This document shows, piece by piece, positions 12,164 through 27,062 of a DNA stretch of 64,000 bases. A program made the translations under genes and the position numbers. Numbering within the stretch: position 1 is the first letter of the stretch; each line of letters opens with the position of its first letter. The notes under the pieces are model-generated. The model was not told the DNA's origin and did no database searches. It saw only the letters and a program-made list of their open reading frames with translations. The DNA comes from Streptomyces sp. R41 (GTDB lineage Bacteria > Actinomycetota > Actinomycetes > Streptomycetales > Streptomycetaceae): contig NZ_CP163443.1 of the NCBI RefSeq assembly GCF_041053055.1, forward strand, positions 10,213,001 to 10,277,000, written 5' to 3'.

Positions 12164-12538
12164 CGCCAGCGGGTGCCCGCGTACGGGCGCCTGCCCCCGG
12201 CCGCCGCGGGGCGGCGGATGCCCCGCAACGCGCCGCCTCCGGCGCTCCGCGTTCGGCGCTCCGCGTTCCGCGATCAGCCATCAGCGACCAGCGATCAGTG
12301 ATCGGTCTCTGCATTCCGCGCGCCGCGTCGGGGTAGCCCCAACGCCTGGTCGGCAAAGGCGACTTGGACGATCCGCACGCTTCACCACCCCGTCACCCTC
12401 CGGACGCGTACGCCACTTCCCGCCCTCCTGACCGCCTTCTATCCTCGCGCCCGGGCCGGGGTCCGAGGCAGGTCGCCGGGCACAGCCCGGCCCGACTCGT
12501 CCTCGTACCCCTTCGTCCGTCGGAAGGTGACACCTCCC
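12164..12538. other. Non-coding gap with short direct repeats
   Basis: This 375-bp gap holds the hairpin above, a perfect 14-bp direct repeat (GGCGCTCCGCGTTC at 12241-12254 and 12255-12268), then a run of imperfect ATCAGC/GATCAG repeats to about 12303. GGAAGG at 12522-12527 is the ribosome site for the mannosidase gene. No convincing reading frame was seen on either strand. Confidence 0.6.
12172..12191 (+). terminator. Short hairpin terminator after the monooxygenase gene
   Basis: GGTGCCCG and CGGGCGCC (one G-U pair) form an 8-bp stem with loop CGTA, 9 bases beyond the stop codon. Confidence 0.5.
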
Positions 12539-14968
12539 ATGCGCCCCCAATGGCTGCGCACAGCAAGACGGTTCGGCGGCAGATCCGCCGCCGTGGTCGT
12601 GACCACGGCGCTCGCCGTGAGCGTCCCGTTCCCGGCCGGCTCGGCTCCCCGGGCCGCGGACCGGCCGGTCTCCCTCGTGGACCCGCTGATCGGATCGGCG
12701 AACGGCGGCAACACCTATCCCGGCGCCACCCTCCCGTACGGGATGATCGCCTGGTCCCCGACCAGCACCACCGGCGACCAGACCGGCACCGGGGCCGCCA
12801 ACGGCTACCAGTACGACACGACCCGCATCCGTGGGCTGAGCCTCACCCACGTCAACGGCGCCGGCTGCAACCCGGGCGCCGCCGGCGACGTGCCGATCAT
12901 GCCGTACGTCGGTGACATGACGTCCTCGCCCTCGGCGGACGCCAAGGACGCGGTCTACGCCGCCGACTTCACGCACGCCGAGGAGAAGGCCGTACCCGGG
13001 CGTTACACGCTCGGCCTCAAGTCCGGTGCCACGGCGGACCTGGCGGTGAGCAAGCGGGCGGGCGTCGCCGACTTCAGCTTCCCGAGCGACCGGCCTGCCA
13101 ACCTGCTCTTCCGCGTCTCCAACTCCCTCAACGGCAGCGAGAACGCGCACGTCGACATCGACACCGCACACCGCAAGGTGACCGGATGGGTGCTCACCGG
13201 CGCCTTCTGCGGCCGCCGCGCGAACGGCGGCACGAACAACCGCAAGAGCTACTACAAGCTGTACTTCAGCGCATCCTTCGACCGTGCCTTCTCCTCCGTG
13301 GGCACCTGGAAGGACGGCACGCTCTCCGCGGGCTCGACCTCCGCCTCGGGTGGGGAGGGGTACGCCACCGGTGCGGACCGCGCGGGCCGCGGCTCCGGAG
13401 GATACGTCGGCTTCGACCCGAGCGCTGACAACGATGTCCACATGCGGATCGGCATCTCGTACGTCAGTCTCGACGGAGCCGAGACGAACCTGCGCGGGGA
13501 GATCGCACCGCACGCGAGCGTCGCGGAGGTGGCCGACGCCGGTGAGCGCGCCTGGGACCGCGAACTGAGCACCGTCCACGTAGACGGCGGCAGCGCCGCC
13601 CAGCGCACCACCTTCTACACGGCGCTCTACCACTCCCTGATGCAGCCCAACCTGATCAGCGACAGGGACGGCCGCTACTACGGCATGGACGCCGCGGTGC
13701 ACCGTCTGGCCCGCGGGCAGCGGGCGCAGTACAGCAACTTCTCGGGCTGGGACCAGTACCGCGCCCAGATACAGCTCCTCGCCCTGCTGAAGCCGAGGAT
13801 CGCGGGCGACTTCGCCCAGTCCCTCTACAACTTCTCGCGGCAGAACGGCGGTGTCTGGGACCGCTGGGTGCACCTCAGTGGCGCCACCCACGTGATGACG
13901 GGCGACCCCTCGGCGGCGACGCTGGCCACCTTCTACGCCATGGGAGTCCGCAACTTCGACTACGAGGGTGCCTTCGACTCGCTCGTGCACCAGGCCACCG
14001 TCCCCCACCCCGACGAACTCTCGGACGCGGGCTGCCCCGGCCAGTGCGTGGGCCAACGGCCCAACCTCGCGCAGTACTTGACCTCGCACTACGCCGCCCA
14101 GGACGTCTGCCACTGCTGGGGCGGCGCCGCCGAGACCCTCGAGGACGCCGTCGCCGACTCCGCGCTGGCGAAATGGGCGAAGCTGCTCGGCAAAGACCAG
14201 GAAGCCGCCGTCTTCTCCGAGCGCGCCGCCTATTGGCGCAACGTCTTCAACCCCGACGCCACGGCCGATGCCGGCTACATCCAGGCCCGCAACCTCGACG
14301 GCTCCTGGGTGTACCCCTTCAGCCCGGGAAGCGACCGCGGCTTCGCGCAAGGCACCAGCGCCACGTACACCTGGATGGTTCCGCAGGACGTCCAGGGCCT
14401 GGCCGCCGCCATGGGCGGCCGAGACAAGGCTGCCGCCCGCCTCGACGGCTTCTTCCACACGGTGGACGGGTCCTGGTCGGTGCGTGGCGGTGACCCGCTC
14501 CGCTACGACCCGACCAACGAACCCGGCATCCACGCGCCCTGGCTCTACAACGCTCTCGGTCAGCCCTGGAAGACCCAGGCGACGGTGCGTCAGATCCTCG
14601 ACACCGTGTACGGCACCGGGCCTTCGGGCCTGCCGGGCAACGACGATCTCGGCACCATGTCCGCCTGGTACGTCTTCTCCGCGCTGGGCCTGTATCCCCA
14701 GACCCCGGGCAGCGCGTCCATGCTGCTGGGCGCCCCACTCTTCCCGAGTGCGGTCGTCGACCGTCCGGGCGGTACCGGGATCACGCTCGGCGCGCCCGAC
14801 GCGGACGCCACTCATCCGTACATCGACGCCGTACGAGTCAACGGCCGTCCCACACAACGCTCCTGGACGGACGGCGACCTGACCACGAAGGGCGGCACCC
14901 TCACCTTCGAGCTCGCCGAACAGCCCGACACTCAGTGGGCCACCGACCCGGCGGACCTGCCGCACTGA
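12539..14968 (+). CDS. Secreted GH92 alpha-1,2-mannosidase
   Basis: The 809-aa product has an export signal (RRFGGRSAAVVVTTALAVSVP) and then a complete GH92 enzyme beginning at VDPLIGSANGGNTYPGATLP. Family hallmarks are GWDQYRAQIQLLALL, NEPGIHAPWLYN and GNDDLGTMSAWYVFSALGLY, which carry acidic residues of the Ca2+-dependent active site. GH92 enzymes remove alpha-linked mannose from fungal mannan and N-glycans by inversion. The paired Cys residues around CPGQC and CHCWGG suit an exported protein. The ATG at 12539 is used because GGAAGG lies about 11 bases upstream; a GTG at 12527 overlaps that site. It is a single gene with its own terminator. Confidence 0.92.
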   Translation: MRPQWLRTARRFGGRSAAVVVTTALAVSVPFPAGSAPRAADRPVSLVDPLIGSANGGNTYPGATLPYGMIAWSPTSTTGDQTGTGAANGYQYDTTRIRGLSLTHVNGAGCNPGAAGDVPIMPYVGDMTSSPSADAKDAVYAADFTHAEEKAVPGRYTLGLKSGATADLAVSKRAGVADFSFPSDRPANLLFRVSNSLNGSENAHVDIDTAHRKVTGWVLTGAFCGRRANGGTNNRKSYYKLYFSASFDRAFSSVGTWKDGTLSAGSTSASGGEGYATGADRAGRGSGGYVGFDPSADNDVHMRIGISYVSLDGAETNLRGEIAPHASVAEVADAGERAWDRELSTVHVDGGSAAQRTTFYTALYHSLMQPNLISDRDGRYYGMDAAVHRLARGQRAQYSNFSGWDQYRAQIQLLALLKPRIAGDFAQSLYNFSRQNGGVWDRWVHLSGATHVMTGDPSAATLATFYAMGVRNFDYEGAFDSLVHQATVPHPDELSDAGCPGQCVGQRPNLAQYLTSHYAAQDVCHCWGGAAETLEDAVADSALAKWAKLLGKDQEAAVFSERAAYWRNVFNPDATADAGYIQARNLDGSWVYPFSPGSDRGFAQGTSATYTWMVPQDVQGLAAAMGGRDKAAARLDGFFHTVDGSWSVRGGDPLRYDPTNEPGIHAPWLYNALGQPWKTQATVRQILDTVYGTGPSGLPGNDDLGTMSAWYVFSALGLYPQTPGSASMLLGAPLFPSAVVDRPGGTGITLGAPDADATHPYIDAVRVNGRPTQRSWTDGDLTTKGGTLTFELAEQPDTQWATDPADLPH

Positions 14969-15009: not shown

Positions 15010-15174
15010 GCAGGGGCCGCTCACTGCGACGTCGAAGCCGCCAAGGGCTCCCACGGGTCGCCCACCGCGGCCAGGAACTGTCCGGCCGATCACGGTGGAG
15101 GCAGTGGTGCCCTCGCCGGTGTCGCGTCTGCGGCGTGATCGGAAAAGCGACGCCGGTTGCGCGGGCGTCGAGGG

Positions 15175-16098
15175 TCAGGCCGGTGTGTCGGCGTCGAGGG
15201 CCGCGGCACGGAGGGCGGCTGCCACGCGGGTGACCGGTTCTGTCGGTGGGTGGGGGAGACGGGCCAGAAGCAGGCGCCGCTGCTCTTGAGGCCCGCCGCG
15301 GACCGGCAGGATGCGTACGCCCGTTGGGGCCGCGGGGGCGAGCGTGGCGGGCACGGTGGTCAATCCGCAGCCGGTGGCCACGAGATGGAGCTTGGCCAGC
15401 CAGTCACGGGCGGTGTGGGCGATCTCTGGCCGCTCGTCCAGGCCCGGCCACACCCCCATCAGCCCGTCTTCTCCGGTGGAGGAACCGGCGATCCAGCGCT
15501 GCCCACGCAGGTCGGCCACGTCGATGAAGTCGCCACGGGCGAGCGGATGGGTGGAGGGCACCGCAAGGCACAGCGCACGTTCGGTGAGCGTCTGCATCGC
15601 CAGCGGGGGCGATTCGGTGTCCGGTGGGCGGAACGGCGGTGCCGACGCCAGCAGGGCCAGGTCCAGACTGCCGGCCCGCAGTGCGCGTACCAGCGCCGGG
15701 GTGGTGCCTTCCCGGCTGACGACGTGGAGGGCAGGGTCCGTGCGGCGCAGCGCGGCCAGGGCCCTGGGCAGCAGGACGGCTCCGGCGCTGGGGAACCAGC
15801 CCAGGCGGACGGTTCCGGCCTGCCCGGGCAGGCCGGACAGCTCGCGCGCGGTGGCGTCGATCTCGTCGAGCACGACCTTCGCGCGGCGCAGCACGACACG
15901 GCCGGCCGTGGTCAGCCGCACGCCGTCGCGCCGCCGCTCCAGCAGCTCCGCGGCCGCCGCCCGCTCGATCGAGGCGATCTGCCGGGACACCGCCGACTGG
16001 GTGTAGCCCAGCGCGGTCGCGGCCGCCGTGAAGGTTCCCTGCTCGGCCACCGCGCGGAAGACGCGCAGCGCGGTGAGCGACACATCCGTGAAGTCCAT
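15175..16098 (-). CDS. LysR-family transcriptional regulator
   Basis: The 307-aa product has an N-terminal winged helix-turn-helix (LRVFRAVAEQGTFTAAATAL, then YTQSAVSRQIASIERAAAAE) and a LysR effector domain from about residue 95 (VRLGWFPSAGAVLLPRALA). Length and layout are standard for the family. It is divergently transcribed from the SDR gene with 71 bp between starts, the usual arrangement for a LysR regulator and its target. The inducer is unknown. Confidence 0.92.
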   Translation of the reverse strand: MDFTDVSLTALRVFRAVAEQGTFTAAATALGYTQSAVSRQIASIERAAAAELLERRRDGVRLTTAGRVVLRRAKVVLDEIDATARELSGLPGQAGTVRLGWFPSAGAVLLPRALAALRRTDPALHVVSREGTTPALVRALRAGSLDLALLASAPPFRPPDTESPPLAMQTLTERALCLAVPSTHPLARGDFIDVADLRGQRWIAGSSTGEDGLMGVWPGLDERPEIAHTARDWLAKLHLVATGCGLTTVPATLAPAAPTGVRILPVRGGPQEQRRLLLARLPHPPTEPVTRVAAALRAAALDADTPA

Positions 16099-16169
16099 GA
16101 CGATTACGCATACTAGCCGTGCCTCAATGTCGTTGGACTCATGGCGCCGGCGTTTCTAGCGTGGCAGGC
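16099..16169. promoter_or_regulatory. Divergent LysR/SDR control region
   Basis: The 71-bp gap between the divergent starts must hold both promoters. LysR regulators normally bind such gaps at T-N11-A sites, but I could not single out one with confidence. Confidence 0.4.
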
Positions 16170-17057
16170 ATGAACGCTTCTCGTATCGCCCTCGTCACGG
16201 GCGCCAACCAGGGGCTCGGCCGCGCTCTCGTCGAAGGGCTGGCGGCCCGCATGGGCCCGGAGGACCTGGTACTGCTCACCGGCCGCAGCCACCAGCGGGT
16301 CGCGGACGCCGCCCGCGAGGTGGCGCAGGCGCCCGGCACACGCAGTCAGGTTCAGGGCCGGGTCCTGGACGTCACCGACACCGACGCCATCGCCCGACTC
16401 GCCGACGAACTCCGGGCACGGCACGGCGGGGTGGACGTGGTGATCTCCAACGCCGTCGCCCGCGTGCTGCCCGGGGAATCGCAGGCCGAGCGGGCCGACG
16501 AATTCATCGACGTCTCCAATACCGCCACCCACGCGATCCTGCGCTCGTTCGGCCCCATCCTGCGCCCGGGCGGCCGCCTGATCGTCGTGGCCAGCAGCCT
16601 GGGCACGCTCGGCCACCTCGACCCGAAGCTGCACCACCTGTTCGACGGCGCGAGCCTCGACCAGGTCGACTACGCCGTCGAGTCCTGGCGCAGCGCCGTC
16701 CACAACAAGACCGCGGAAGAGGCGGGCTGGCCTCGCTGGCTGAACGTGCCCTCGAAGGTCGCCCAGGTCGCCGCCGTCCGCGCGGTCGCCGTCGAACGCC
16801 GCGAGCGCGACCTCGCGGCCAATACCCTGATCGCCTCCGTGTGCCCCGGCATGGTCGACACTGCCACCTCCCGGCCCTGGTTCAGCGACTACAGCCAGGC
16901 CCAGTCACCCTCCCAGGCCGCCCTCGCCGTCCTCGACCTGGTGTTCGCCGAGCACGTCGATGCCGCCCTCTACGGCGAGTTGGTCCGTTTCGGCAAGGCC
17001 CTGCCCTGGCACGGCGGCACACCCCCGATGGAGCAGGACCAGATGCTCAGGCCCTGA
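16170..17057 (+). CDS. Short-chain dehydrogenase/reductase
   Basis: The 295-aa product is an SDR. The Rossmann motif TGANQGLG lies at the N-terminus, ISNAVAR replaces the usual NNAG, and the catalytic region has VVASSLGTLGH followed by LDQVDYAVESWRSA. The usual YxxxK is not clear, since the Tyr is followed by AVE rather than xxxK, so activity may be altered or a nearby K (HNKTAEE) may serve. CPGMVDTATSRPWFSD follows, as in carbonyl reductases. The ATG at 16170 begins the conserved sequence. It is the likely target of the divergent LysR regulator. Confidence 0.85.
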   Translation: MNASRIALVTGANQGLGRALVEGLAARMGPEDLVLLTGRSHQRVADAAREVAQAPGTRSQVQGRVLDVTDTDAIARLADELRARHGGVDVVISNAVARVLPGESQAERADEFIDVSNTATHAILRSFGPILRPGGRLIVVASSLGTLGHLDPKLHHLFDGASLDQVDYAVESWRSAVHNKTAEEAGWPRWLNVPSKVAQVAAVRAVAVERRERDLAANTLIASVCPGMVDTATSRPWFSDYSQAQSPSQAALAVLDLVFAEHVDAALYGELVRFGKALPWHGGTPPMEQDQMLRP

Positions 17058-17068
17058 CCGCAGGACGG

Positions 17069-17149
17069 CGGCCCCCCTACGCCGTCGACCCGGACGACGC
17101 GCGACGGCTGTGGACGCTGTCGGAGGTCTTGCTCGCCAACGCCCGCTGA
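17069..17149 (+). pseudogene. C-terminal scrap of a second SDR gene
   Basis: Just after the SDR stop codon, a different frame encodes PPYAVDPDDARRLWTLSEVL and ends in a natural stop. This looks like the C-terminus of another SDR (the D-x-x-x-ARRLWxLSE ending is common in retinol-dehydrogenase-like SDRs). No start or Rossmann part belongs to it, so it is probably a leftover of a deleted or recombined gene. Confidence 0.4.
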
Positions 17150-17253
17150 ACCGCCTGGCTGCCATTCCACGAGGTTGGACCGATCGGGTGGCGGCAGGTG
17201 GCTCTTCACGCGGTGTTCTCGTCGTTCGAAATGCCAGGCTTTCGGCGTCGGGT

Positions 17254-17259
17254 TAGCAT
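17254..17259 (+). promoter_or_regulatory. -10 box of a probable leaderless promoter
   Basis: TAGCAT ends 6 bases before the GTG start at 17266, and no ribosome site is present. A clear -35 was not recognised. Confidence 0.35.
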
Positions 17260-17265
17260 CGCGGC

Positions 17266-17733
17266 GTGATTACGGCCTGGTCGCCTTTCCGTACGCCACG
17301 GAGTCGCTCATCAGCGACTCCGTGGCGTGTGCTCGGACTGGGCCTGTTCCTCTTCGGTCTGCTGTACGCGCACGCCGTCAGCCCTGAGGCCACGGTGAGT
17401 CACCTTGCTGTGGGCGAGGGCGTGTCGGTATCCGGCGTTCATTTTGAGCTCGCCGCTCAGAACGAGAGCGTTGCGAGTGGCACGCCGGCTCGGCCGGCGG
17501 AAGAGAAGTCGGCGGGTCACCGGGACGGCCACGGACACCAGCATGCTGTCGAGGACTGCGCGCTCGGGCAGCCTCCGCAGAGCCCCGACGCAGCGGTGCC
17601 CTGTCTGTCTCCGCTGCACATGGCGAGCGGCGGCAACGAGATGCTTCGGCCGGTGCGGGCTGATCACGCCGCAGCGCGGGACGTCGTGGCCCCGATAACG
17701 CATGCGGCGGACTCCGCGGTTCTACGTATCTAG
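17266..17733 (+). CDS. Small membrane-anchored His-rich protein, possibly DUF6153-like
   Basis: The 155-aa product has one N-terminal hydrophobic helix ([18 protein letters not shown]), then a hydrophilic tail rich in His ([14 protein letters not shown]) with a second Cys (VPCLSPLH). This layout, with an [13 protein letters not shown] segment after the helix, fits small actinobacterial DUF6153-type proteins of unknown function; metal binding is a guess from the His/Cys content. The GTG start follows a -10-like TAGCAT. It stands alone ahead of the PLP-enzyme operon. Confidence 0.6.
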
Positions 17734-18080
17734 GTCAGCGCTTCTCGAACCGGTCGACGCTTCCTCGGATGCACCGGCTCGGCTCAAGGCCGAGTTCGCG
17801 CCTGCCTCCGGGCGGCCGGTTCATGGCGTCTGACCTCCTGCGCATCGCGCTCTCCGGCACGGCGCGGGGATGGTCACGAGTCGTTCCCCCACTGATCCCC
17901 GTCCCGACCGCGAGTGTTCCGGCAGGGGCAGCCGCCGGGCGGAGGATCTGTGCCGCTCACCCCTGCCAGCCTTCGGACCCGTGCCTCCGGTCGGCTCCGG
18001 CCGACCCGCCGTGTGCCGCTTCCGCGGCGGCACACGAGACGGGCATCCGCACGCGTCCACACCGATCGAGAGCGAAACGC
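17734..18080 (+). other. Leader region of the PLP-enzyme/MFS operon
   Basis: This 347-bp gap stays open in the frame of the next gene but reads as low-complexity Pro/Arg/Ala sequence, so I treat it as untranslated. A 9-bp hairpin (GTGTGCCGC, loop of 7, GCGGCACAC) sits at 18011-18035, 46 bases before the ATG; it might act as an attenuator or terminator. No known riboswitch was recognised. Confidence 0.4.
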
Positions 18081-19190
18081 ATGCACTCCCTGACCACGAG
18101 TGATTTCACCCCCGTCGGCTCCAGCCTCCTGGGCCTCGTCGGCAACACCCCTGTCCTGCACGTGTCCCAGCCCTTCACCCCGTCCGACCGCGGCTTCTGG
18201 GCGAAGCTGGAGGGCTTCAACCCCGGTGGCATCAAGGACCGCCCCGGACTCCACATGGTCGAACGGGCCCGTACCCGCGGCGAGTTGCGGCCGGGCCGCC
18301 CGATCGTCGAGTCGACCAGCGGCACACTGGGCCTCGGTCTGGCCCTGGCCGCAATGGTGTACGGGCACCCCGTCACGCTCGTCACCGACCCGGGCCTCGA
18401 ACCCTCGATGACCAGGCTCCTCGTCGCCCACGGCGCCACCGTCGACGTGGTGTCGCAGCCGCACCCCACGGGCGGCTGGCAGCAGGCTCGCCGTGACCGG
18501 GTCGCCGAGCTGCTGACGGAGCATCGGGGAGCGTGGTCCCCGGATCAGTACAACAACCCCGACAACGTCGCCGCGTACACCCCGCTTGCTCTCGAACTCG
18601 CCTCGCAGATGGGCCACATCGACGTACTCGTCTGCAGTGTCGGTACCGGGGGCCACTCCGCGGGCATCTCCCGCGTGCTGCGCCAGCTCTGTCCGGGAAT
18701 GCGTCTGGTGGGCGTCGACACCATCGGCTCGACCATCTTCGGCCAGCCCGACCGGCCCCGACTCATGCGGGGACTCGGATCGAGTATCTATCCGCGCAAT
18801 GTCGCCTACGAGAACTTCTCCGAGGTGCATTGGGTGGCCCCGGCCGAATCGGTCTGGGCGTGCAGACAGCTGGCCGCCTCGCACTACGCCACGGGCGGCT
18901 GGAGCGTCGGTGCGGTCGCGCTGGTGGCCGGCTGGCTCGCCCGTACGACTCCTCCCAGCACCCGCGTCGTGGCGATCTTCCCGGACGGGCCCCAGCGCTA
19001 TCTGGAGACCGTCTACGACGACCAGTTCTGCGCCGAACACGGGCTGTTGCACGGGCCTCCGGCGCCCGAACCCGAGGTCGTGGGCCACCCGGACGAGAAG
19101 GAAGTCACCCGCTGGACGCGCTGCACCTCGGTCCTCGACCCACTCGCCGCGACGGCGGCGACGGTCGGCGTGGAAGGCGACGCGAAGTGA
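18081..19190 (+). CDS. PLP-dependent cysteine-synthase-family enzyme
   Basis: The 369-aa product is a fold-type II PLP enzyme. [10 protein letters not shown] opens the catalytic domain and [15 protein letters not shown] carries the PLP Lys52. [15 protein letters not shown] is the substrate-carboxylate loop and [14 protein letters not shown] the phosphate-binding loop. Relatives include O-acetylserine or O-phosphoserine sulfhydrylases and 2,3-diaminopropionate synthases (SbnA-like). The C-terminal tail (about 330-369) is longer than in CysK. The ATG at 18081 was chosen because conserved sequence starts here. Its last codon overlaps the start of the MFS gene (GTGA), so the two are translationally coupled. 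Its closeness to the graspetide genes suggests precursor supply, tailoring or immunity, none shown. Confidence 0.82.
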
Positions 19191-20557
19191 GGACGACGCT
19201 CGCGCAGGTCCGCTCGTACGACCGCAGCGTCCAGCTGCTCCTGGTGAACCAGTTCACCATCAATCTCGGTTTCTACATGCTGATGCCGTATCTCGCCCAG
19301 CATCTGTCCGGCACTCTCGGCCTGGCCGGCTGGCTGGTCGGACTCGTCCTGGGCGTACGGAACTTCAGCCAGCAGGGCATGTTCCTCGTCGGCGGTACGC
19401 TCGCCGACCGTTTCGGCTACAAACCCCTGATCGTCGCCGGATGCGTGCTGCGTACGGTGGGCTTCGCCGCGCTCGGGCTGGTCGACTCGGTCCCGGCGCT
19501 GGTCGCGGCCTCGGCAGCGGCCGGCTTCGCGGGCGCTCTGTTCAACCCGGCTGTACGCGCCTACCTCGCCGCCGACGCGGGCGAGCGCCGCGTCGAGGCC
19601 TTCGCCCTCTTCAACGTCTTCTATCAGGCGGGCATTCTGCTCGGACCGCTGGTCGGGATGGTACTGACCGGCTTCGACTTCCGTTTCACCTGCCTCGTCT
19701 CGGCAGCGATCTTCGCGTTGCTGAGCGCGGTGCAGATCCGCGCCCTCCCCGCCCGCAAGGCGGACCACGCCGTGGACGCGGACGCCGGTGACCGCAAGAG
19801 CGTGCCGGCGCAGTGGCGAGGCATCGTGCGCAACCGCGCGTTCCTCCTTTTCGCCATGGCCATGATCGGCTCGTACGTCCTGTCCTTCCAGGTCTATCTG
19901 GCGCTGCCGCTGGAGGTACGACGCCTGGGCGGCGAAGGGGAGTTCGGGACGGCGGCCGTCGCGCTGCTCTTCGCGGCCTCGGGACTGCTCACGATCTTCG
20001 GACAGACTCGCGTGACCGCGTGGTGCAAAGCACGGCTGGAGCCCGGTCAGGCCCTGGCCTGGGGGCTGTTGGGCATGGGTTTGGCCTTCGTGCCGCTGCT
20101 CGCGGCCACGGTCGTGCCCGTGCCTGACGAACAGGTCGGGCGCCGGCTGCTCGCCGCCCTGCCGCCGACACTGGCGGCGCTGCTCCTCGCAATGGGCACG
20201 ATGATCGCGTACCCCTTCGAGATGGACACGATCGTCCGCCTCTCCGGGGACCGCCTCGTCGCCACTCACTACGGGCTCTACAACACCATCTGCGGGATCG
20301 GCATCACGCTGGGCAACCTGCTCACCGGAGCGGCCCTCGACGCCGCCCGGGCGGCCGGCATGTCCGCACTGCCATGGCTCGTGCTGTTCGTCCTGGGCGT
20401 GGTGTGTGCCGCGTTCCTCCATGGCCTGTATCGGGCCGGTCTTATGGCAACCATGGCCGCTGAGCCCGCGTCCGTCACTGCGGAGGGAACCTCCCTGCTT
20501 CAGCGAGGAGAGCAAGTCGAAGTCGCCGGGAACTCTCCTGGGATGGTGGGGCGTTGA
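19187..20557 (+). CDS. MFS transporter
   Basis: The 456-aa product has 11-12 hydrophobic helices in two halves joined by a charged loop ([16 protein letters not shown]). The MFS signature between helices 2 and 3 is [16 protein letters not shown] (G-x-x-x-DRFGxK/R). It resembles drug or amino-acid efflux permeases. The GTG start overlaps the stop of the PLP-enzyme gene by 4 bp and has GGAAGG nearby. It is the only transporter in the graspetide neighbourhood and could export the peptide or a product of the PLP enzyme. Confidence 0.85.
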
Positions 20558-20752
20558 GGTCACTGAGGATGAAGCATTGGCCGAAGCTTTTGGCCGGGAC
20601 CAAGCAGACACACGAGCAATACGGCAATAGGCAAGCTTGAAACGACGCGATGTGATGACCTTCACCCCGATGTGGCGGAAAGTGATGAATTCCTTACGGC
20701 CATGACACGTACGGGTGGACGTAGAGCATCGTGAAACCGGGGAGGATTTTTC

Positions 20753-20944
20753 ATGCGACCGTTCACCCTCAACTACGCCATGCCCACGGGGCAGTCGGCC
20801 GCAGTAACCCCGTACCACTTCGATGTGGCGCTGCAGTTGAACGTCCTGCCCGACGGCCGCCCGGCCGTCAGCGACCGTGCGCTCCTGATGGCCACCGGTA
20901 CCACGACGTCCACGGCCGGCTCCCAGACGCACTTCGACGACTGA
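20753..20944 (+). CDS. Graspetide (ATP-grasp-modified RiPP) precursor peptide
   Basis: This 63-aa peptide matches the actinobacterial ATP-grasp target family. It has an N-terminal PFTLNYA motif (residues 3-9), a middle LQLNVLPDGRPAVSD segment (28-41) probably recognised by the maturase, and a Thr/Ser-rich C-terminus ending THFDD (59-63). In the presumed core (about 47-63) the only acidic residues are Asp62 and Asp63; hydroxyl donors are Thr48, 50, 51, 52, 54 and 59, and Ser53 and 57. At most two side-chain ester links are therefore possible within the core. A strong GGGGAGGA site precedes the ATG, fitting high expression. The maturase gene starts 15 bp downstream. Confidence 0.88.
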   Translation: MRPFTLNYAMPTGQSAAVTPYHFDVALQLNVLPDGRPAVSDRALLMATGTTTSTAGSQTHFDD

Positions 20945-20959
20945 CGGCCGCCCGCGCGC

Positions 20960-21913
20960 ATGACCGTACTCATTCTCACGGCCGAGCAGGACGTCACCGC
21001 CGACATGGTGGTGGCCCAACTGCACGAGCGGGGCGTGCCCATGGTGCGCCTCGACCCCGCCGACCTGCCGGGCAAAGCGGTGCTGTCCGCCGACTACGCC
21101 CACGGTGACTTCGACGGCTATCTGTCGGTCAACGGCCACGTGCTCAGCATGGGCGGTCTGCGATCCGTGTGGGTGCGCCGGCCGGGGGAGCCGGCCGCCC
21201 ACGCCGCCGAGCCCTCGCCCTGGCTCACCGCCGAGACCCGACAGGCCCTGTTCGGCATGCTCTACTCCGCATCGACCCGCTGGATGAACCATCCGCGCCG
21301 CGCCGAGCAGGCCCGGCACAAACCCTGGCAGCTGCGGGTCGCCCACAGCAGCGGCTTCGCGGTGCCGCCCACCATCATCACGACCGCCCCGCGCGTGGCC
21401 CAGGAGTTCGTCGAGGAGTACCGGGAAGTGGTGGTGAAGTCGGCTTCGGGGCCTCCGCCCGGCGAGCCGCCGGTGGCCCTGCCGACCACGCTCATCGGAC
21501 CCGACGCGGACTTCTCCGGCGTCGCGGCCGGCCCCGCGCTGCTGCAGCAGTACATACCCAAGCGTGCCGACATCCGGCTGACCAGCATCGGCCCCCGCAT
21601 GTTCGCCGCCAGGAAGGCCGCCGTGCCCGGACAGGTCGACGGGCGGTTCGGCGACACCGGACACGCCTGGGAGGCCATCGCCGTGCCCGGCCGCATCGCC
21701 CGCTCGGTCCACGAGTACCTCGCCTTCACCGGACTCGCCTACGCCGCCTTCGACTTCGCCGAGGACGAGGACGGCGTCTGGTGGTTCCTGGAGGGCAACC
21801 AGGGAGGCCAGTTCGGCTTCATCGAGCTGGAGACGGGACAGCCCATAGCCGACGCGGTCGCCGAGTGGCTGTCGCAGCGAAGACCCGCGCACCGTATCCC
21901 GGAGGGGCACTGA
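20960..21913 (+). CDS. tgmB: ATP-grasp ribosomal peptide maturase (SAV_5884 type)
   Basis: The 317-aa product is an ATP-grasp ligase of the MvdD/TgmB kind. The N-terminal pre-ATP-grasp domain contains RLDPADLPGKA. The central part has EFVEEYREVVVKS, whose Lys would bind ATP, and QQYIPKRADIRLT. The C-terminal metal- and phosphate-binding strand is WWFLEGNQGGQFGFIE, followed by TGQPIADAVAEWL. Such enzymes phosphorylate Asp/Glu side chains and join them to Ser/Thr (ester) or Lys (amide) side chains of the precursor. With a Thr/Ser-rich, Lys-free core here, esters are expected. No methyltransferase gene, common beside this family, lies next to it. Confidence 0.88.
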   Translation: MTVLILTAEQDVTADMVVAQLHERGVPMVRLDPADLPGKAVLSADYAHGDFDGYLSVNGHVLSMGGLRSVWVRRPGEPAAHAAEPSPWLTAETRQALFGMLYSASTRWMNHPRRAEQARHKPWQLRVAHSSGFAVPPTIITTAPRVAQEFVEEYREVVVKSASGPPPGEPPVALPTTLIGPDADFSGVAAGPALLQQYIPKRADIRLTSIGPRMFAARKAAVPGQVDGRFGDTGHAWEAIAVPGRIARSVHEYLAFTGLAYAAFDFAEDEDGVWWFLEGNQGGQFGFIELETGQPIADAVAEWLSQRRPAHRIPEGH

Positions 21914-22014: not shown

Positions 22015-25000
22015 ATGGAACGTGACCGGAGCAGCACCGCTCTTCCCCTCTCCCGCCGTCAACTGCTCGCCGCAGCAGGCGTCGCCGGGGCCGCCACCGC
22101 CCTCGGCACGGCCCCGGCGAAGGCCCGGACCAGCGCCGGTCTCTCGCTCTCCTTCACTCGGGCCACCAACGGTTCGGCGACACTCTCACCCGCGGGCGAC
22201 CGGTTGATCGCCGAGCTGCAGAACGTCCTGTGGTCGCTCCCGCGCACCGGCGGCCGTGCCGTACCCCTGACCCCGGCCGACCTGGAACCGAACAGGCCCA
22301 CGCACTCCCCGGACGGCAAGCTCATCGCGTTCTGCGCGTACCGGGGCGGCGGCTTCCACGTGTGGACGATGCGCCCCGACGGATCGGACCTGCGCCGTCG
22401 CACCGACGGGCCCTGGGACGACCGGGGCCCGGCCTGGTCACCCGACGGCACCCGTATCGCCTTCGCCTCCGAGCGCTGCGGCGACCCGGTGCAGGGCAGC
22501 CCGTACCGCATCCACGTCCTGGACCTCAACAGCGGCGAACTCACCCGCGTCACCGGGCTCTTTGGGCAGGACGGGCCCCTGCAGGACGGTCCCTGGGAGG
22601 ACTTCGACCCCACCTGGTCGCCGGACGGGAAGCGCATCCTGTTCGTGCGGGCCAAGGCAGTGACCACACCTTTCGGACTGGGCGTGGACGCCCGCACCGT
22701 GGCCGCAGTACCGGCCGACGGTGCGGGCCCGGTCGCCCTCGAGCACACCGAGACCGAGGCCGCGCAGGTCATGACCCCGGCCCTCGCCCGGGACGGCCGC
22801 CGTCTGGCCTATCTGCGGACCACGGCATCACCCAACGGCTCCTGCACCCTCGTCGTCGACGGCAAGCCGGTCGCCGTGGCCGGAGACATCGCTCCCGTAC
22901 CTCCTCGCTGGACCGCGGCGGGGGAGCTCCTTCTGACAGTGGACGGCCACTTCACGCTCCTACGCCCCGAGAAGCCGGGGGAGGCGGAGCCGATCGCCTT
23001 CGAGGGCGTGCTGCCCGTCGAGCGGCCGCGGTACCAAGTCAAGGAGTACGACCTCGGCGACGCGCGTGTGCGCCCGGTGCGGGGCATCCACCTGCCCGCG
23101 CTGTCCCCCGACGGCCGGCGCGTCGCCTTCGCCGCCCTCAACTCGCTGTGGCTGGCGGACACTTCGGGCGGCCGTGCGCCCGAGCGGCTCCGGCAGTCAC
23201 CGGCCACCCGCTACCTCCTCGCACCGGTCTGGGCGCGTGACGGACGGTCGCTCGTGTACGCCGACGACCGCGACGGACTGCTCGGGGTGTACCGGCGGGA
23301 TCTCGATACCGGTGAGGAGACCGCGCTCGCGACGGGCGGGCGGGTGCATCCGGTGCTGTCGCCGGACGGCGAGCGGCTTGCCTGCCTCGACATGACGGGG
23401 CGGCTCGTCGTGCGCGAGCTGAGCGCGGGCACGGAACGCGTGCTGGTGACGCCGCTCGGCGGGGGCGGGCTGCCCGGCCGTCCGAGCTGGTCGCCCGACG
23501 GCCGGTACATCGCGTTGTGCGACCGCAATCGCCTCAACCTGCGCTTCCGCGAGGGCTACAACGTCATCCGGATCGTCGACACGACGACCGGTGCCGACCG
23601 CCTGCACGCCGTCGCGCCTCATGTCTCCCTCGCCGACCGCTACGACTCCGGGCCGGTCTGGTCACCCGACGGGCGCTGGATGGCCGTAGTCGTCGAATCC
23701 GCGCTGTGCCTGCTGCCCGTCGCCGCCGACGGCACACCGCAGGGCGAACCGCGCACCCTCACCACCGAACCGGCCGACCACCCCTCGTGGTCCGCGGACT
23801 CCAAGACGCTGCTGTATCTGTCGGGCGGCCGCCTGAGACTGATCGGCGTCGACGGACGGGACGCCCGCACCGTGCGTGTCCCGGTCGACCGGCGGGGCTC
23901 CGTCCCCGTCGACACCGTGGTGCACGCCGGACGGCTGTGGGACGGCACCGGCGATGTGGTGCGCGAGGACGTCGACATCGTCGTACGAGGTGGCCGCATC
24001 GACTCCGTCGAACCGCACCGGGCCGCCCGCCGCGACGCACGGCGGCGGGTCGACGCCTCGAACCGCACCGTCGTCCCCGGGCTGTGGGACACCCACACCC
24101 ACCCGTGGCAGAGCACCTACGGCGGACGCCAGACCGTCGGCCAGCTGACGTACGGGATCACCACCGCCGTGTCCCTCGGCGGCTTCGCGTACGAACAGGC
24201 CCGCATTCGCGAGGCGGTGGCAAGCGGCGAGCTCGCCGGACCCCGGCTGCTGACGACCGGCGAACTGCTCGACGGATCCCGCGTCGCGTACAGCATGGGG
24301 CGGGCCCACCGCACCAGGGACGGGCTGCGACGCTCGCTGGAACGGGGTGCAGCGCTGGACTGGGACTTCGTCAAGACCTATGTGCGGGCGCCGGGTTGGG
24401 TGATGGAGGAGGCCGCGCGGTTCGCTCACGAGCGCCTCGGGGTCCGCTCGGGAAGCCACCTCCTGTCTCTGGGCGTCCAGCTGGGGCAGGATCTGACGAC
24501 CCATCTGCAAGCCACGCAGCGCGCCGAGTTCGGGCACGCGATCACCGCGACCGGGCGCGCCTACGACGATGTGGTGGAGATATACAGCGCCCGGGGCGTC
24601 AACTTCGCCCTGATCGCCACGCCGTTCACCTCCGCCCCGCTGCTCGGCGCCGATCCCGCTCTCGGCGACGACCCCCGTGTCACCGTCGTGATGCCGCCCT
24701 GGGACTCCGCCGCGGTACGGCAGTCGGCGGGCGTGCCGCCCACGGCGGCCCAACTGGCCACGCTGCGCACGGAGACCGACATCTACCGGCGTGTGCTGGC
24801 CGCGGGCGGTCTCGTCGCCCTCGGCACGGACCAGCCGCTCGTCCCCGTCGGGCTCTCCCTGCACCTGGGCCTGCGCGCCCTGCACCGCGGCGGACTGTCC
24901 CCGGCGGGGGCCCTGCGCACCGTGACCGTGCTGCCGGCCCGCCTGTTCGGAGTCGACCGTGACCTGGGCACTGTGGAGCCGGGGAAGCTGGCCGACCTGA

Positions 25001-25203
25001 CCGTGGTGGACGGCGACCCGTTCACCGACTTCGACACACTCCTGCGCACGGTGTCGGTGCTCAGGGGAGGGACACCCTACGAGACGGCTGACCTGGTGGC
25101 CGCGTTCGAGCCGTCGTCGCGGCCCGCGGCGACACGCGACGACTGGCTCGAAGTCGGGCGGCTCATGCGGAGGGACGGCTGCTGCGGCTCGGAATCACTC
25201 TGA
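22015..25203 (+). CDS. Secreted beta-propeller (TolB/PD40-like) amidohydrolase
   Basis: The 1062-aa product starts with a twin-arginine signal (SRRQLLAAAGVAGAATALG). Repeated PD40/TolB blades cover about 45-640 (for example WSPDGTRIAFAS, WSPDGKRILFV, WSPDGRYIALC, WSPDGRWMAVV). An amidohydrolase domain fills about 650-1040, with VVPGLWDTHTHPW carrying the metal-binding His694 and His696, and SGSHLLSLG and ALGTDQPLVPVG later. This fusion occurs in actinobacteria and proteobacteria, where the enzyme part is imidazolonepropionase- or dipeptidase-like; the substrate is unknown. The final CCGSE tail has paired Cys. It appears to be a single gene. Confidence 0.87.
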   Translation: MERDRSSTALPLSRRQLLAAAGVAGAATALGTAPAKARTSAGLSLSFTRATNGSATLSPAGDRLIAELQNVLWSLPRTGGRAVPLTPADLEPNRPTHSPDGKLIAFCAYRGGGFHVWTMRPDGSDLRRRTDGPWDDRGPAWSPDGTRIAFASERCGDPVQGSPYRIHVLDLNSGELTRVTGLFGQDGPLQDGPWEDFDPTWSPDGKRILFVRAKAVTTPFGLGVDARTVAAVPADGAGPVALEHTETEAAQVMTPALARDGRRLAYLRTTASPNGSCTLVVDGKPVAVAGDIAPVPPRWTAAGELLLTVDGHFTLLRPEKPGEAEPIAFEGVLPVERPRYQVKEYDLGDARVRPVRGIHLPALSPDGRRVAFAALNSLWLADTSGGRAPERLRQSPATRYLLAPVWARDGRSLVYADDRDGLLGVYRRDLDTGEETALATGGRVHPVLSPDGERLACLDMTGRLVVRELSAGTERVLVTPLGGGGLPGRPSWSPDGRYIALCDRNRLNLRFREGYNVIRIVDTTTGADRLHAVAPHVSLADRYDSGPVWSPDGRWMAVVVESALCLLPVAADGTPQGEPRTLTTEPADHPSWSADSKTLLYLSGGRLRLIGVDGRDARTVRVPVDRRGSVPVDTVVHAGRLWDGTGDVVREDVDIVVRGGRIDSVEPHRAARRDARRRVDASNRTVVPGLWDTHTHPWQSTYGGRQTVGQLTYGITTAVSLGGFAYEQARIREAVASGELAGPRLLTTGELLDGSRVAYSMGRAHRTRDGLRRSLERGAALDWDFVKTYVRAPGWVMEEAARFAHERLGVRSGSHLLSLGVQLGQDLTTHLQATQRAEFGHAITATGRAYDDVVEIYSARGVNFALIATPFTSAPLLGADPALGDDPRVTVVMPPWDSAAVRQSAGVPPTAAQLATLRTETDIYRRVLAAGGLVALGTDQPLVPVGLSLHLGLRALHRGGLSPAGALRTVTVLPARLFGVDRDLGTVEPGKLADLTVVDGDPFTDFDTLLRTVSVLRGGTPYETADLVAAFEPSSRPAATRDDWLEVGRLMRRDGCCGSESL

Positions 25204-25264: not shown

Positions 25265-25302
25265 GATCACTTCGGATCCGTTGTCGCTTCGGATCCGTGA
25301 TC
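25265..25302. terminator. Bidirectional terminator between convergent genes
   Basis: GATCAC pairs with GTGATC and GGATCCG with CGGATCC, separated by a 3-base bulge and a 9-base loop, in the gap between the convergent amidohydrolase and pseudokinase genes. Confidence 0.55.
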
Positions 25303-26902
25303 ACTTCGAACTCGGCCGAAAGGACTGGAGGAAGACGTCCAGCGCCTTCCGGTTGGCGGAGGTGTTCCAGTCGTCCGCCGGGGTCGTCCAGCGCAGCGAG
25401 AAGCCCCGGTGGTCGCCGATGAGGAAACCCCGTCCGAACGTGTGCTCGCGGAGTCCGCCGTCGGTCACGGAGTACCACTCCATGTCGGCACCCTCGCGGC
25501 CGCGATAGTCCACGGCACGGATGTCGCCCACCCGCTCGTAGCCGGTGGAAGCGGCCCGCAGGGACGGCTCCAGCGCGCTCCAGACCGCGACGGGATCCGG
25601 GCCCAGCCGCGTGCTGTAGGTGACGGCCAGCGTGCGTGGGTCACCACTCGCGCCGAAGGTGACCCGGTAGGACAGGTCGGCGGAGCTTGTGGTCCGCAGG
25701 CGTTCCCAGCCCTTGGGGAGGTCGATGGAGAAGCCCTCGGGTGCCTGATAGCGGGAGAAGCCGGACGGCACCTTCTCTCCGACGGTGAAGGAGGGGGAAG
25801 GCGTGGGGGACGCCGACGGTGTCCGCTCGGGGAGCGTGGCGGGATCGGTGGGGTCGGCGGAGGGGACCGAGGACGTCCGTGAGGGAGCCGCGCCGGATGC
25901 GGACGTGTCCCCGTCGGGCAGGCCGCCCGCCGCGGTGAGCACGGCGAAGCAGACGACGGTGACGGCCAGCGCTCCGCCCAGCAGGACCGGCCGGCTGACC
26001 GGCAGTCCGCCCCGGGTGCGTCCCGTGCGCCGGGCGACGGTGCCCGGATCCCGGTAGAGCGGCAGGGGCGCCGCGGCCGTCGCATCGTCGAGGTCCTCCT
26101 TGAGGATGCGCGCCAGGGCCTCGCGTACGACCGGCTCGGGCACCCGCTCCAAGTGATCCCTGCGCAGGAGACCCTGAATCGCCGGTGCGAGCGGTCCTGC
26201 GCTCAGCGGCGCCCGGATGGGCAGCCGTTCCACGGCACGCAGCGTGGCGTCGAGCCGTCCGCGGTCGCGGATGGGCGGCCAGCCCTCCACCATCGCGTAC
26301 ATCATCGCGCCCAGCGCCCACAGGTCCGCCGCCGGTCCGGTGCCTTCGCCCCGGGCCTGCTCCGGGGAGGCGTACGACGGTGCGGTGACGCGTGGCGAGA
26401 CGGTGGCCCCCATGAGGCCGAAACCGTTCACCGTGACCGCGTCCCGCTCGTGCACGCGCACCTGACCGGGGCTGAGATCGCCGTGCGTCACCCCCGCGTT
26501 GTGGGCGGCGGCGAGGACGTCGAGGAGGCCGAGCCCGATGCGGGCCGCGCGGATGTAGTTCATCGGGCCGCGCCCGAGGAGTTCGGTCAGCGGGATGCCC
26601 GGGGACCGCTCCGTGACCGTCCACACGAAGTCGTGCTCCTCGATCACGTCGACGACCGCGGCCACCCGGCCGGGACAGACGAGCCCCAGGCGCTCGGACT
26701 CGCGCAGGATCCGCGCCGCGGTACGGTGCTCCGTCTCCTCGTGCCGATGTTCCGGGAGCCGCGACCGGGTCAGGGTGACGGGCCGCTCGAAGTCGACGTC
26801 CTGTCCGTGCCAGCCGACGCGGCCCTCTTCCCGGTGGGCGACCTCGAGCAGTCGGTATCTACCGGCGACCAACTCGCCCGTGGAGTCTTGCACCTTGACC
26901 AT
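25301..26902 (-). CDS. Membrane-anchored serine/threonine pseudokinase
   Basis: The 533-aa product has a Hanks-type kinase fold (about 15-270), one membrane helix (about 307-330, LLGGALAVTVVCFAVLTAA) and an extracellular part after a Ser/Thr/Pro linker. Key catalytic positions are changed: there is no Gly-rich loop, the VAIK lysine is replaced (VTLTR, 42-46), HRDLKPxN reads HGDLSPGQ (140-147), and DFG reads GFG (160-162). Only Asp142 of the catalytic core remains. APSYASPEQARG and DLWALGAMMYAM, from the C-lobe, are intact. A scaffold or allosteric role is more likely than phosphotransfer. The ATG at 26902 is preferred over 26908, because GAGGG is 6 bases upstream of it. Confidence 0.85.
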   Translation of the reverse strand: MVKVQDSTGELVAGRYRLLEVAHREEGRVGWHGQDVDFERPVTLTRSRLPEHRHEETEHRTAARILRESERLGLVCPGRVAAVVDVIEEHDFVWTVTERSPGIPLTELLGRGPMNYIRAARIGLGLLDVLAAAHNAGVTHGDLSPGQVRVHERDAVTVNGFGLMGATVSPRVTAPSYASPEQARGEGTGPAADLWALGAMMYAMVEGWPPIRDRGRLDATLRAVERLPIRAPLSAGPLAPAIQGLLRRDHLERVPEPVVREALARILKEDLDDATAAAPLPLYRDPGTVARRTGRTRGGLPVSRPVLLGGALAVTVVCFAVLTAAGGLPDGDTSASGAAPSRTSSVPSADPTDPATLPERTPSASPTPSPSFTVGEKVPSGFSRYQAPEGFSIDLPKGWERLRTTSSADLSYRVTFGASGDPRTLAVTYSTRLGPDPVAVWSALEPSLRAASTGYERVGDIRAVDYRGREGADMEWYSVTDGGLREHTFGRGFLIGDHRGFSLRWTTPADDWNTSANRKALDVFLQSFRPSSK

Positions 26903-27062
26903 GGTCATCCCTCGCTGTGCACCGGGCTCTCACCTTTCCCGGAAGTACGGAGGGTGTGACGTTGAGTGTTCAACGGGGAGCGGTTCTCGAGGCCTGTTTT
27001 TTCTCAACTCTCCGACGGTCGCCCACTCGTGCGAAAGGTTCAGGCCGGCGGCGCGTGACGGT

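What the first reader, a model, noticed from the sequence alone, without database searches (positions are those of the whole stretch)
18081..21913. Compact graspetide cluster with a cysteine-synthase-like partner and no methyltransferase
A 63-aa precursor with PFTLNYA leader and THFDD end sits 15 bp before its ATP-grasp maturase, a combination known for omega-ester peptides. Unusually, the conspicuous upstream partners are a PLP enzyme and an MFS exporter that overlap by 4 bp, and no methyltransferase is adjacent. The PLP enzyme might tailor the peptide, supply a building block or protect the cell; this is inference from position only. The presumed core has only Asp62 and Asp63 as acid partners, limiting it to at most two ester links.
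Basis: partly seen in the sequence, partly recalled or inferred. Interest (0 to 1): 0.78.

Follow-up and report, generated by a model that had tools for sequence, protein, structure and literature searches.

The report
Common Streptomyces graspetide gene pair
This is a two-gene recipe for a small, probably ring-closed peptide that many Streptomyces carry in nearly identical form; the neighbouring enzyme and exporter that looked like unusual partners most likely just landed next to it.

Summary
The genes are as described. The precursor (20753-20944) matches PF14404 "Strep_pep" (119.9 bits, cut-off 25) and TIGR04186; the ATP-grasp gene (20960-21913) matches TIGR04187 (361 bits, cut-off 350). The claimed cluster is not a conserved unit. 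The PLP enzyme and MFS exporter are their own pair: the exporter lies next to the PLP gene in 20 of 20 sampled PLP loci, the precursor in 1 of 20. The precursor-maturase pair stands without them in 40 of 40 sampled genus loci and in 64 of 65 loci found through the maturase; both exceptions are one genome, S. albiflavescens. Four relatives show the site without the block: alpha-mannosidase gene, a divergent 343-aa gene, precursor. In the window a 5.5-kb block with the PLP-MFS pair stands where they have the 343-aa gene. The pair keeps its own conserved upstream block. The family is already catalogued. What stands out instead is the core T[T/A]S[T/K]AGSxTHFDD: 237 of 240 distinct database homologues fit, 239 end in THFDD, and it is more conserved than the leader. 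That suggests one product under strong purifying selection; its function is unknown.

The parts
20753..20944 (+). graspetide precursor, 63 aa; leader PFTLNYA (res. 3-9), middle block QLNVLPDGRPAV, core GTTTSTAGSQTHFDD (res. 49-63)
   Evidence: PF14404 119.9 bits, TIGR04186 47 bits; 188 database homologues
20960..21913 (+). ATP-grasp graspetide synthetase, 317 aa
   Evidence: TIGR04187 361.2 bits over cut-off 350; PDB 9bou_A E 2.6e-116; D265, E278 and N280 invariant in 12 aligned sequences, window included
20649..20752 (+). conserved block upstream of the precursor (promoter/operator by inference) with GTGATGACCTTCA at 20652 and GTGATGAATTCCT at 20682
   Evidence: homology with 18 relatives begins at 20647-20651; the second motif stands 70-76 bp before the start codon in 23 upstream regions
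20522..20648 (.). older flank shared with L124-L130, starting about where their divergent 343-aa gene begins; the last codons of the MFS gene lie on it
   Evidence: blastn homology of L124-L130 begins at 20521-20527; the 343-aa gene lies just before it in L124-L130 and has no match in the window
15028..20521 (.). block standing where relatives have the 343-aa gene: LysR gene, SDR gene, 155-aa ORF, PLP gene, MFS gene; not part of the graspetide cassette
   Evidence: missing between the homology blocks ending at 15024-15027 and beginning at 20522-20527 in L124, L125, L126, L128; LysR by Pfam
18081..19190 (+). SbnA/cysteine-synthase-like PLP enzyme, 369 aa (neighbour, not partner)
   Evidence: PALP PF00291 174 bits; TIGR03945 245.5 bits, under cut-off 349.95; best solved relatives SbnA 5d87/5d84/5d86
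19187..20557 (+). MFS exporter, 456 aa (pairs with the PLP gene)
   Evidence: PF07690 124 bits; next to the PLP gene in 20 of 20 fetched loci
17266..17733 (+). 155-aa ORF without Pfam/NCBIfam match, travels with PLP-MFS
   Evidence: tblastn match upstream of the PLP gene in 18 of 20 PLP loci, weak (34-38%) in five of the 18
22015..25203 (+). PD40 propeller-amidohydrolase, downstream neighbour
   Evidence: next to the pair also in L131 (82%), not in L123
25301..26908 (-). Ser/Thr kinase-like gene, frequent neighbour of the pair in the close clade
   Evidence: PF00069 55.6 bits; downstream of the pair at 55% or more identity in 14 of 70 maturase-led loci

Best explanation
A stand-alone two-gene graspetide cassette of the Streptomyces Strep_pep family. 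The PFTLNYA leader docks the precursor on the ATP-grasp enzyme (inferred from established graspetide biochemistry). The enzyme phosphorylates the side-chain carboxylates of the last residues D62 and D63 and joins them as omega-esters to invariant hydroxyl residues of the core (candidates T51, S53, S57, T59), giving a mono- or bicyclic peptide; which hydroxyls are used is not shown. Cleavage and export are left to unlinked host functions. The PLP-MFS pair upstream is an independent conserved unit brought next to the cassette, in a block also carrying a LysR and an SDR gene, in the ancestry of this strain and S. albiflavescens. Shown: gene content, family membership, core conservation, different upstream gene in relatives. 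Inferred: chemistry, linkage pattern, leader role, promoter role of the upstream block, direction of the replacement.
For: Profile matches over curated cut-offs. PF14404 in 218 of 392 genomes of the genus; in 19 of 296 class genomes, the 19 all of this genus. Fetched PLP loci: MFS next in 20 of 20, precursor in 1 of 20; fetched precursor loci: maturase in 40 of 40, PLP or MFS in 0 of 40. Maturase-led set: of 65 loci with the precursor, 1 has PLP+MFS. In 36 hand-picked genomes with a listed place for both genes, 22 have them on one contig, at least 32.7 kb apart, and 14 on different contigs. Site without the block in L124, L125, L126, L128; divergent 343-aa gene next to the precursor in 7 of 7 closest relatives L124-L130. 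Homology with PLP-MFS loci L065/L066 ends at 20380/20476; cassette homology begins at 20521-20527. Conserved upstream block. No third conserved gene in 104 loci. Near relative in PDB, 9bou. Core conservation.
Against: No product was measured. The order PLP-MFS-precursor-maturase is shared with S. albiflavescens, so a recent functional coupling in this lineage is not excluded. MFS and precursor are on one strand 195 bp apart, so read-through transcription is possible. The PLP loci were the 20 best-matching ones and the 40 precursor loci my picks from listed rows. L148 and L167 are cut 0.3 and 0.9 kb upstream of the precursor, so the absence of PLP-MFS there is not informative.
Confidence: 0.9

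Rival explanations
1. The PLP enzyme and exporter were recruited to the graspetide cluster in this lineage: the PLP enzyme supplies or installs a beta-substituted alanine on the peptide and the MFS protein exports it.
For: Same strand, 195 bp spacing, order kept in S. albiflavescens (L063/L123) with about 90% protein identity of PLP and MFS.
Against: Adjacency in one further genome only; the cassette keeps its own upstream block; PLP-MFS is a unit of its own elsewhere; the window's core keeps the family sequence, so no new target residue appeared.
Confidence: 0.06
2. The cassette does not make esters: the maturase forms a lactam or another ligation on the precursor.
For: Some graspetide synthetases form both esters and amides (PMC13097080, introduction); K58 occurs in 53 of 87 unique precursors.
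Against: In this precursor position 58 is Q and the core has no Lys; K58 is replaced by Q or A in other members while T51, S53, S57 and T59 are invariant in 87 unique precursors.
Confidence: 0.07
3. The almost invariant core reflects a genus-specific signal, cofactor-like or housekeeping product and not a weapon.
For: Core positions 49-63 have mean entropy 0.22 bit against 0.63 for residues 1-9 and 1.74 for residues 10-26 in 87 unique precursors; 237 of 240 distinct homologues fit the core pattern, as do 65 of 65 precursors found through the maturase; T51, S53, A55, G56, S57 and T59 show synonymous codon changes; found in 1 of 114 sampled genera; two maturase groups (the second 55-62% alike to the window's) with different upstream motifs keep the same core.
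Against: Not found in 174 of 392 genomes of the genus, so it is not essential; a frozen core also fits an antibiotic or protease inhibitor with one conserved target. The family profile and the word search favour conserved members, and I measured no other graspetide family as a control. One homologue is named from a Nonomuraea metagenome bin (P0080), against a strict genus limit.
Confidence: 0.3

Closest known systems
Strep_pep family (Pfam PF14404; NCBIfam TIGR04186 with maturase TIGR04187, 'putative ATP-grasp-modified RiPP')
   Same: Full-length match over cut-off, same genus, same gene pair, same core. A passage of PMC8939145 lists Strep_pep among the families that go back to an earlier survey of ATP-grasp loci.
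   Different: Nothing in the pair itself; only the upstream neighbourhood differs.
Prunipeptin of Streptomyces prunicolor (MIBiG BGC0002725)
   Same: A bicyclic peptide of Streptomyces by the title seen in a reference list, called a graspetide in PMC11888242; its cluster family there has 3,572 Streptomyces members of 3,589 (one passage), which would fit the spread of this pair.
   Different: I could not read the prunipeptin paper or compare its sequence, so identity with this family is a guess.
Graspimiditides (fuscimiditide, amycolimiditide; group 13)
   Same: ATP-grasp esters between Thr and Asp in an actinobacterial RiPP (passages).
   Different: Those clusters carry an isoaspartyl methyltransferase; none was found here, and this core has only two acids, at its very end.
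SbnA, O-ureidoserine synthase and CmnB (for the neighbouring PLP enzyme)
   Same: PLP enzymes of the cysteine-synthase kind; best PDB matches SbnA, E about 1e-44.
   Different: Below the SbnA family cut-off (245.5 against 349.95 bits); none of the adjoining window genes that I scanned is an SbnB-like dehydrogenase.

Membership tests
Strep_pep / TIGR04186 graspetide precursor | profile match over the curated cut-off | tested here: met
   PF14404 119.9 bits (25); TIGR04186 47 bits (25)
Strep_pep / TIGR04186 graspetide precursor | adjacent ATP-grasp maturase of TIGR04187 | tested here: met
   361.2 bits against 350, 15 bp downstream; a relative of it lies next to the precursor in 40 of 40 fetched loci
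Graspetide (omega-ester/amide peptide) | side-chain ester or amide rings in the product | not testable with these tools
   no mass spectrometry
Graspetide (omega-ester/amide peptide) | conserved hydroxyl/Lys donors and Asp/Glu acceptors in the core | tested here: met
   T51, S53, S57, T59, D62, D63 invariant in 87 unique precursors
Graspimiditide (group 13) | adjacent isoaspartyl methyltransferase | tested here: not met
   none among the scanned neighbours; the genome's best TIGR04188 match is 6.3 Mb away and under the cut-off
   besides the window only in S. albiflavescens; in 36 genomes with both genes, never closer than 32.7 kb on the 22 shared contigs, on different contigs in 14
SbnA (2,3-diaminopropionate synthesis) | TIGR03945 match over its cut-off | tested here: not met
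   245.5 bits against 349.95
SbnA (2,3-diaminopropionate synthesis) | SbnB-like partner gene (recalled) | tested here: inconclusive
   not among the scanned window neighbours; not searched for in the genome or in the 20 PLP loci

The most novel reading that the evidence does not exclude
More than half of Streptomyces species make one and the same frozen 15-residue graspetide from a two-gene cassette under its own conserved promoter; it acts as a genus-specific signal or housekeeping factor and not as a diversifying weapon.
Probability: 0.28. Interest if true: 0.68.

Novelty: new member of a known kind. Interest (0 to 1): 0.28.

Why it matters
It removes a false lead: the apparent PLP tailoring partner is most likely a chance neighbour, as relatives that lack the block show. 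It also points to a testable question that the adjacency hid: why a peptide product would stay almost unchanged across a genus while its leader and maturase diverge.

Tried and rejected
Considered and rejected: PLP-MFS as tailoring partners. A recent swap of the cassette alone between the two nearest genomes: four-fold site divergence of the maturase (0.157) lies within that of five flanking genes (0.123-0.195), while its protein identity is higher (0.978 against 0.881-0.935), so purifying selection is the simpler reading; the precursor (2 of 40 four-fold sites differ) has too few sites to judge. Ser/Thr kinase or PD40-amidohydrolase as partner: kinase at 55% or more in 14 of 70 loci; PD40 next to the pair in L131 besides the window, with one weak 28% partial match in L153. 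An ECF-type promoter for the sister group: suggested by the alignment, but my first pattern hit only 28 of 104 regions at varying positions; no sigma factor is claimed. Rfam: no match in the window at gathering scores. Papers: the searches gave, in the listings and passages that I saw, no paper describing this PLP-MFS neighbourhood or the frozen core; one search returned unrelated papers in its 30 listed of 217. What I saw of papers: PMC8939145 outline, abstract, passages and section 5; PMC13097080 outline, abstract, passages and sections 5 and 7; passages only of PMC12291112, PMC11888242, PMC10787088, PMC13001092, PMC9576775, PMC7794033 and PMC13127372. Lee 2020 was not looked up and was seen as a citation only; Ramesh 2021 and Unno and Kodani 2021 are not held. 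No structure was predicted.

Limits: the 20 PLP loci are the best-matching ones after the window (of 212 genomes with a match); the 40 precursor loci are my picks from the listed places (of 218 genomes with a match), and both place lists were cut. The 36 genomes were picked out by hand from those lists, one place per gene, although some genomes have second copies. The 65 precursors found through the maturase are the less biased set; the other 5 of 70 loci are four Massilia loci without this precursor and L182, where only part of the maturase matched. Two of these 65 (L148, L167) are cut too close upstream to show a PLP-MFS pair. Some genomes are in both the set of 40 and the set of 70. The clustering used ORFs of 90 aa or more and strong matches only, so small or divergent partner genes could be missed. 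Two of 89 unique precursors (64 aa) were left out of the column statistics. L186 and L188 were dropped from the maturase alignment after an error on L188. Of 188 and 228 proteins found, the 120 listed in each (240, all distinct) were analysed. LysR was first named by eye and then confirmed by Pfam.
Full report
What is there. The window lies at 10.21-10.28 Mb of a 10.46-Mb single-contig genome; the close relatives of the maturase locus are Streptomyces. The described genes are present at the stated coordinates. The precursor matches PF14404 with 119.9 bits and TIGR04186 with 47 bits; the maturase matches TIGR04187 with 361.2 bits against a cut-off of 350. The best solved relative of the maturase is 9bou_A (E 2.6e-116; about 60% alike by my reading of the printed alignment). 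The upstream genes are an SbnA/cysteine-synthase-like PLP enzyme (PF00291 174 bits; TIGR03945 245.5 bits, under its cut-off of 349.95) and an MFS exporter.

Is the cluster a unit? PF14404 has a match in 218 of 392 genomes of the genus; a relative of the PLP enzyme at E 1e-80 or better occurs in 212 of 392. I fetched the 20 best-matching PLP loci after the window and 40 precursor loci, with about 7 kb on each side (one stretch, L078, was cut by its contig end). All 20 PLP loci have the MFS gene next to the PLP gene; one of them, L063, also has the precursor and maturase. All 40 precursor loci have the maturase; none has the PLP or MFS gene. A separate search by the maturase gave 70 loci, 66 of them not Massilia; 65 of these have the precursor, and one, L123, has PLP and MFS. 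In two others (L132, L148) a 24-28% partial PLP-like match lies several kilobases away; L148 and L167 are cut too close upstream to judge. In 36 genomes that I picked out because both genes have a listed place (PLP enzyme 76% or more identical), 22 have them on one contig, the closest 32.7 kb apart, and 14 on different contigs (coordinates).

How they came together. blastn of the window against the relatives shows the junction. In L124, L125, L126 and L128 homology runs up to window base 15024-15027, just after the GH92 gene (12527-14968), and resumes at 20522-20527. Between these blocks the relatives carry not the PLP-MFS block but a 343-aa gene on the opposite strand, without Pfam match. That gene lies next to the precursor in all seven closest relatives after S. 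albiflavescens, L124-L130, and tblastn found it neither in the window nor in L063/L123. Seen from the other side, homology with PLP-MFS loci elsewhere (L065, L066) ends at 20380 and 20476. So a block with LysR, SDR, a 155-aa ORF, PLP and MFS genes stands in the place of the 343-aa gene, and the last codons of the MFS gene lie on the flank shared with the relatives. That the block came in, and did not leave the relatives, is inferred from its rarity. Downstream, a Ser/Thr kinase-like gene is the more frequent neighbour (14 of 70 loci); the PD40-amidohydrolase between maturase and kinase is shared with L131 but missing from L123.

The cassette's own border. In 18 relatives homology with the window begins at 20647-20651, about 104 bp before the start codon. 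This block holds GTGATGACCTTCA (20652) and GTGATGAATTCCT (20682). One or both motifs occur in 26 of 104 distinct upstream regions, the second at 70-76 bp from the start codon in 23; a different motif, TTCGATTCGTATA-like, occurs in 51 of 104 (46 of them 102-113 bp upstream, 5 at 43 bp), no region has both kinds, and 27 have neither. I read these as promoter or operator elements of two groups of cassettes; that is inference. ORF clustering in 104 non-redundant loci found no third gene conserved with the pair: apart from the maturase, its antisense shadow frames and extended frames of the precursor itself, the widest cluster reaches 20 of 104 and is scattered on both sides and strands (ORFs of 90 aa or more only).

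The core. In 87 unique 63-aa precursors T51, S53, A55, G56, S57, T59, H60, F61, D62 and D63 never vary. Mean column entropy is 0.22 bit in 49-63, 0.63 in 1-9, 1.74 in 10-26, 0.46 in 27-38 and 1.52 in 39-48. Of 240 distinct database homologues (the 120 listed from each) 237 fit the core pattern T[T/A]S[T/K]AGSxTHFDD and 239 end in THFDD; so do 65 of 65 precursors found through the maturase. Synonymous codon changes at T51, S53, A55, G56, S57, T59 and H60 show that the DNA is not simply young; F61, D62 and D63 show one such change among 101 genes. K58 of many homologues alternates with Q and A, so a lactam from that position is unlikely to be the conserved link. The acids D24 (invariant), D34 and D41 (85 and 86 of 87) lie in the middle block and were not tested as partners. 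Searches by a profile or by words of the precursor favour conserved members, and no other graspetide family was measured as a control.

Mechanism. By established graspetide chemistry (PMC13097080, introduction) the synthetase phosphorylates an acidic side chain and a Ser/Thr/Lys side chain attacks it. Here the acceptors in the core are D62 and D63, and the invariant donors are T51, S53, S57 and T59. Two links are the maximum for side chains of the core; a third through the C-terminal carboxylate is conceivable because a passage of PMC10787088 suggests such a link elsewhere.

Known or new. A passage of PMC8939145 lists Strep_pep (PF14404) among the families from an earlier survey of ATP-grasp loci. 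A large Streptomyces cluster family is filed under prunipeptin (PMC11888242, passage); whether it is this family I could not check. The family was found in 19 of 296 class genomes and in 1 of 114 genera; against a strict genus limit, one database homologue is named from a Nonomuraea metagenome bin (P0080) and one locus from an 'Actinobacteria bacterium' (L148). The figure legend in section 5 of PMC8939145 describes its cluster 2, of actinobacterial type by that text, as having cores so diverse that only aspartates are conserved; that contrast with the frozen core here is worth testing, and I did not measure it.

Verdict. Observation right, partnership not supported, family known, frozen core worth a separate look.

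Noticed in passing
window 17266-17733: 155-aa ORF with a His-rich stretch and no Pfam or NCBIfam match lies upstream of the PLP gene in 18 of 20 fetched PLP-MFS loci (34-73% identity): perhaps a third member of the PLP-MFS unit.
   Followed up: partly
L124-L130, e.g. L126 4509-5540 (-): 343-aa gene without Pfam match, divergent from the precursor in seven close relatives and missing from the window.
   Followed up: partly
window 25301-26908: Ser/Thr kinase-like gene is a frequent convergent neighbour of the pair in the close clade (14 of 70 loci at 55% or more).
   Followed up: partly
L132 and L166 (one contig); L138 and L164; L171 and L189: Some species carry two cassettes, with maturases about 80% and 60% alike to the window's, and nearly the same core.
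   Followed up: partly
G000 C1:3882863-3883795: TIGR04188 match (256.6 bits, under cut-off 380) with one TAA inside, far from the window.
   Followed up: no
L186, L188, L190, L191: Massilia genomes encode maturase relatives of 28-30% identity; tblastn with the window's precursor found nothing in these loci.
   Followed up: no
window 22015-25203: 1062-aa PD40 propeller plus amidohydrolase with a weak partial match to the lasso peptide isopeptidase model (81.9 bits, cut-off 400); a close relative lies next to the pair in L131.
   Followed up: partly
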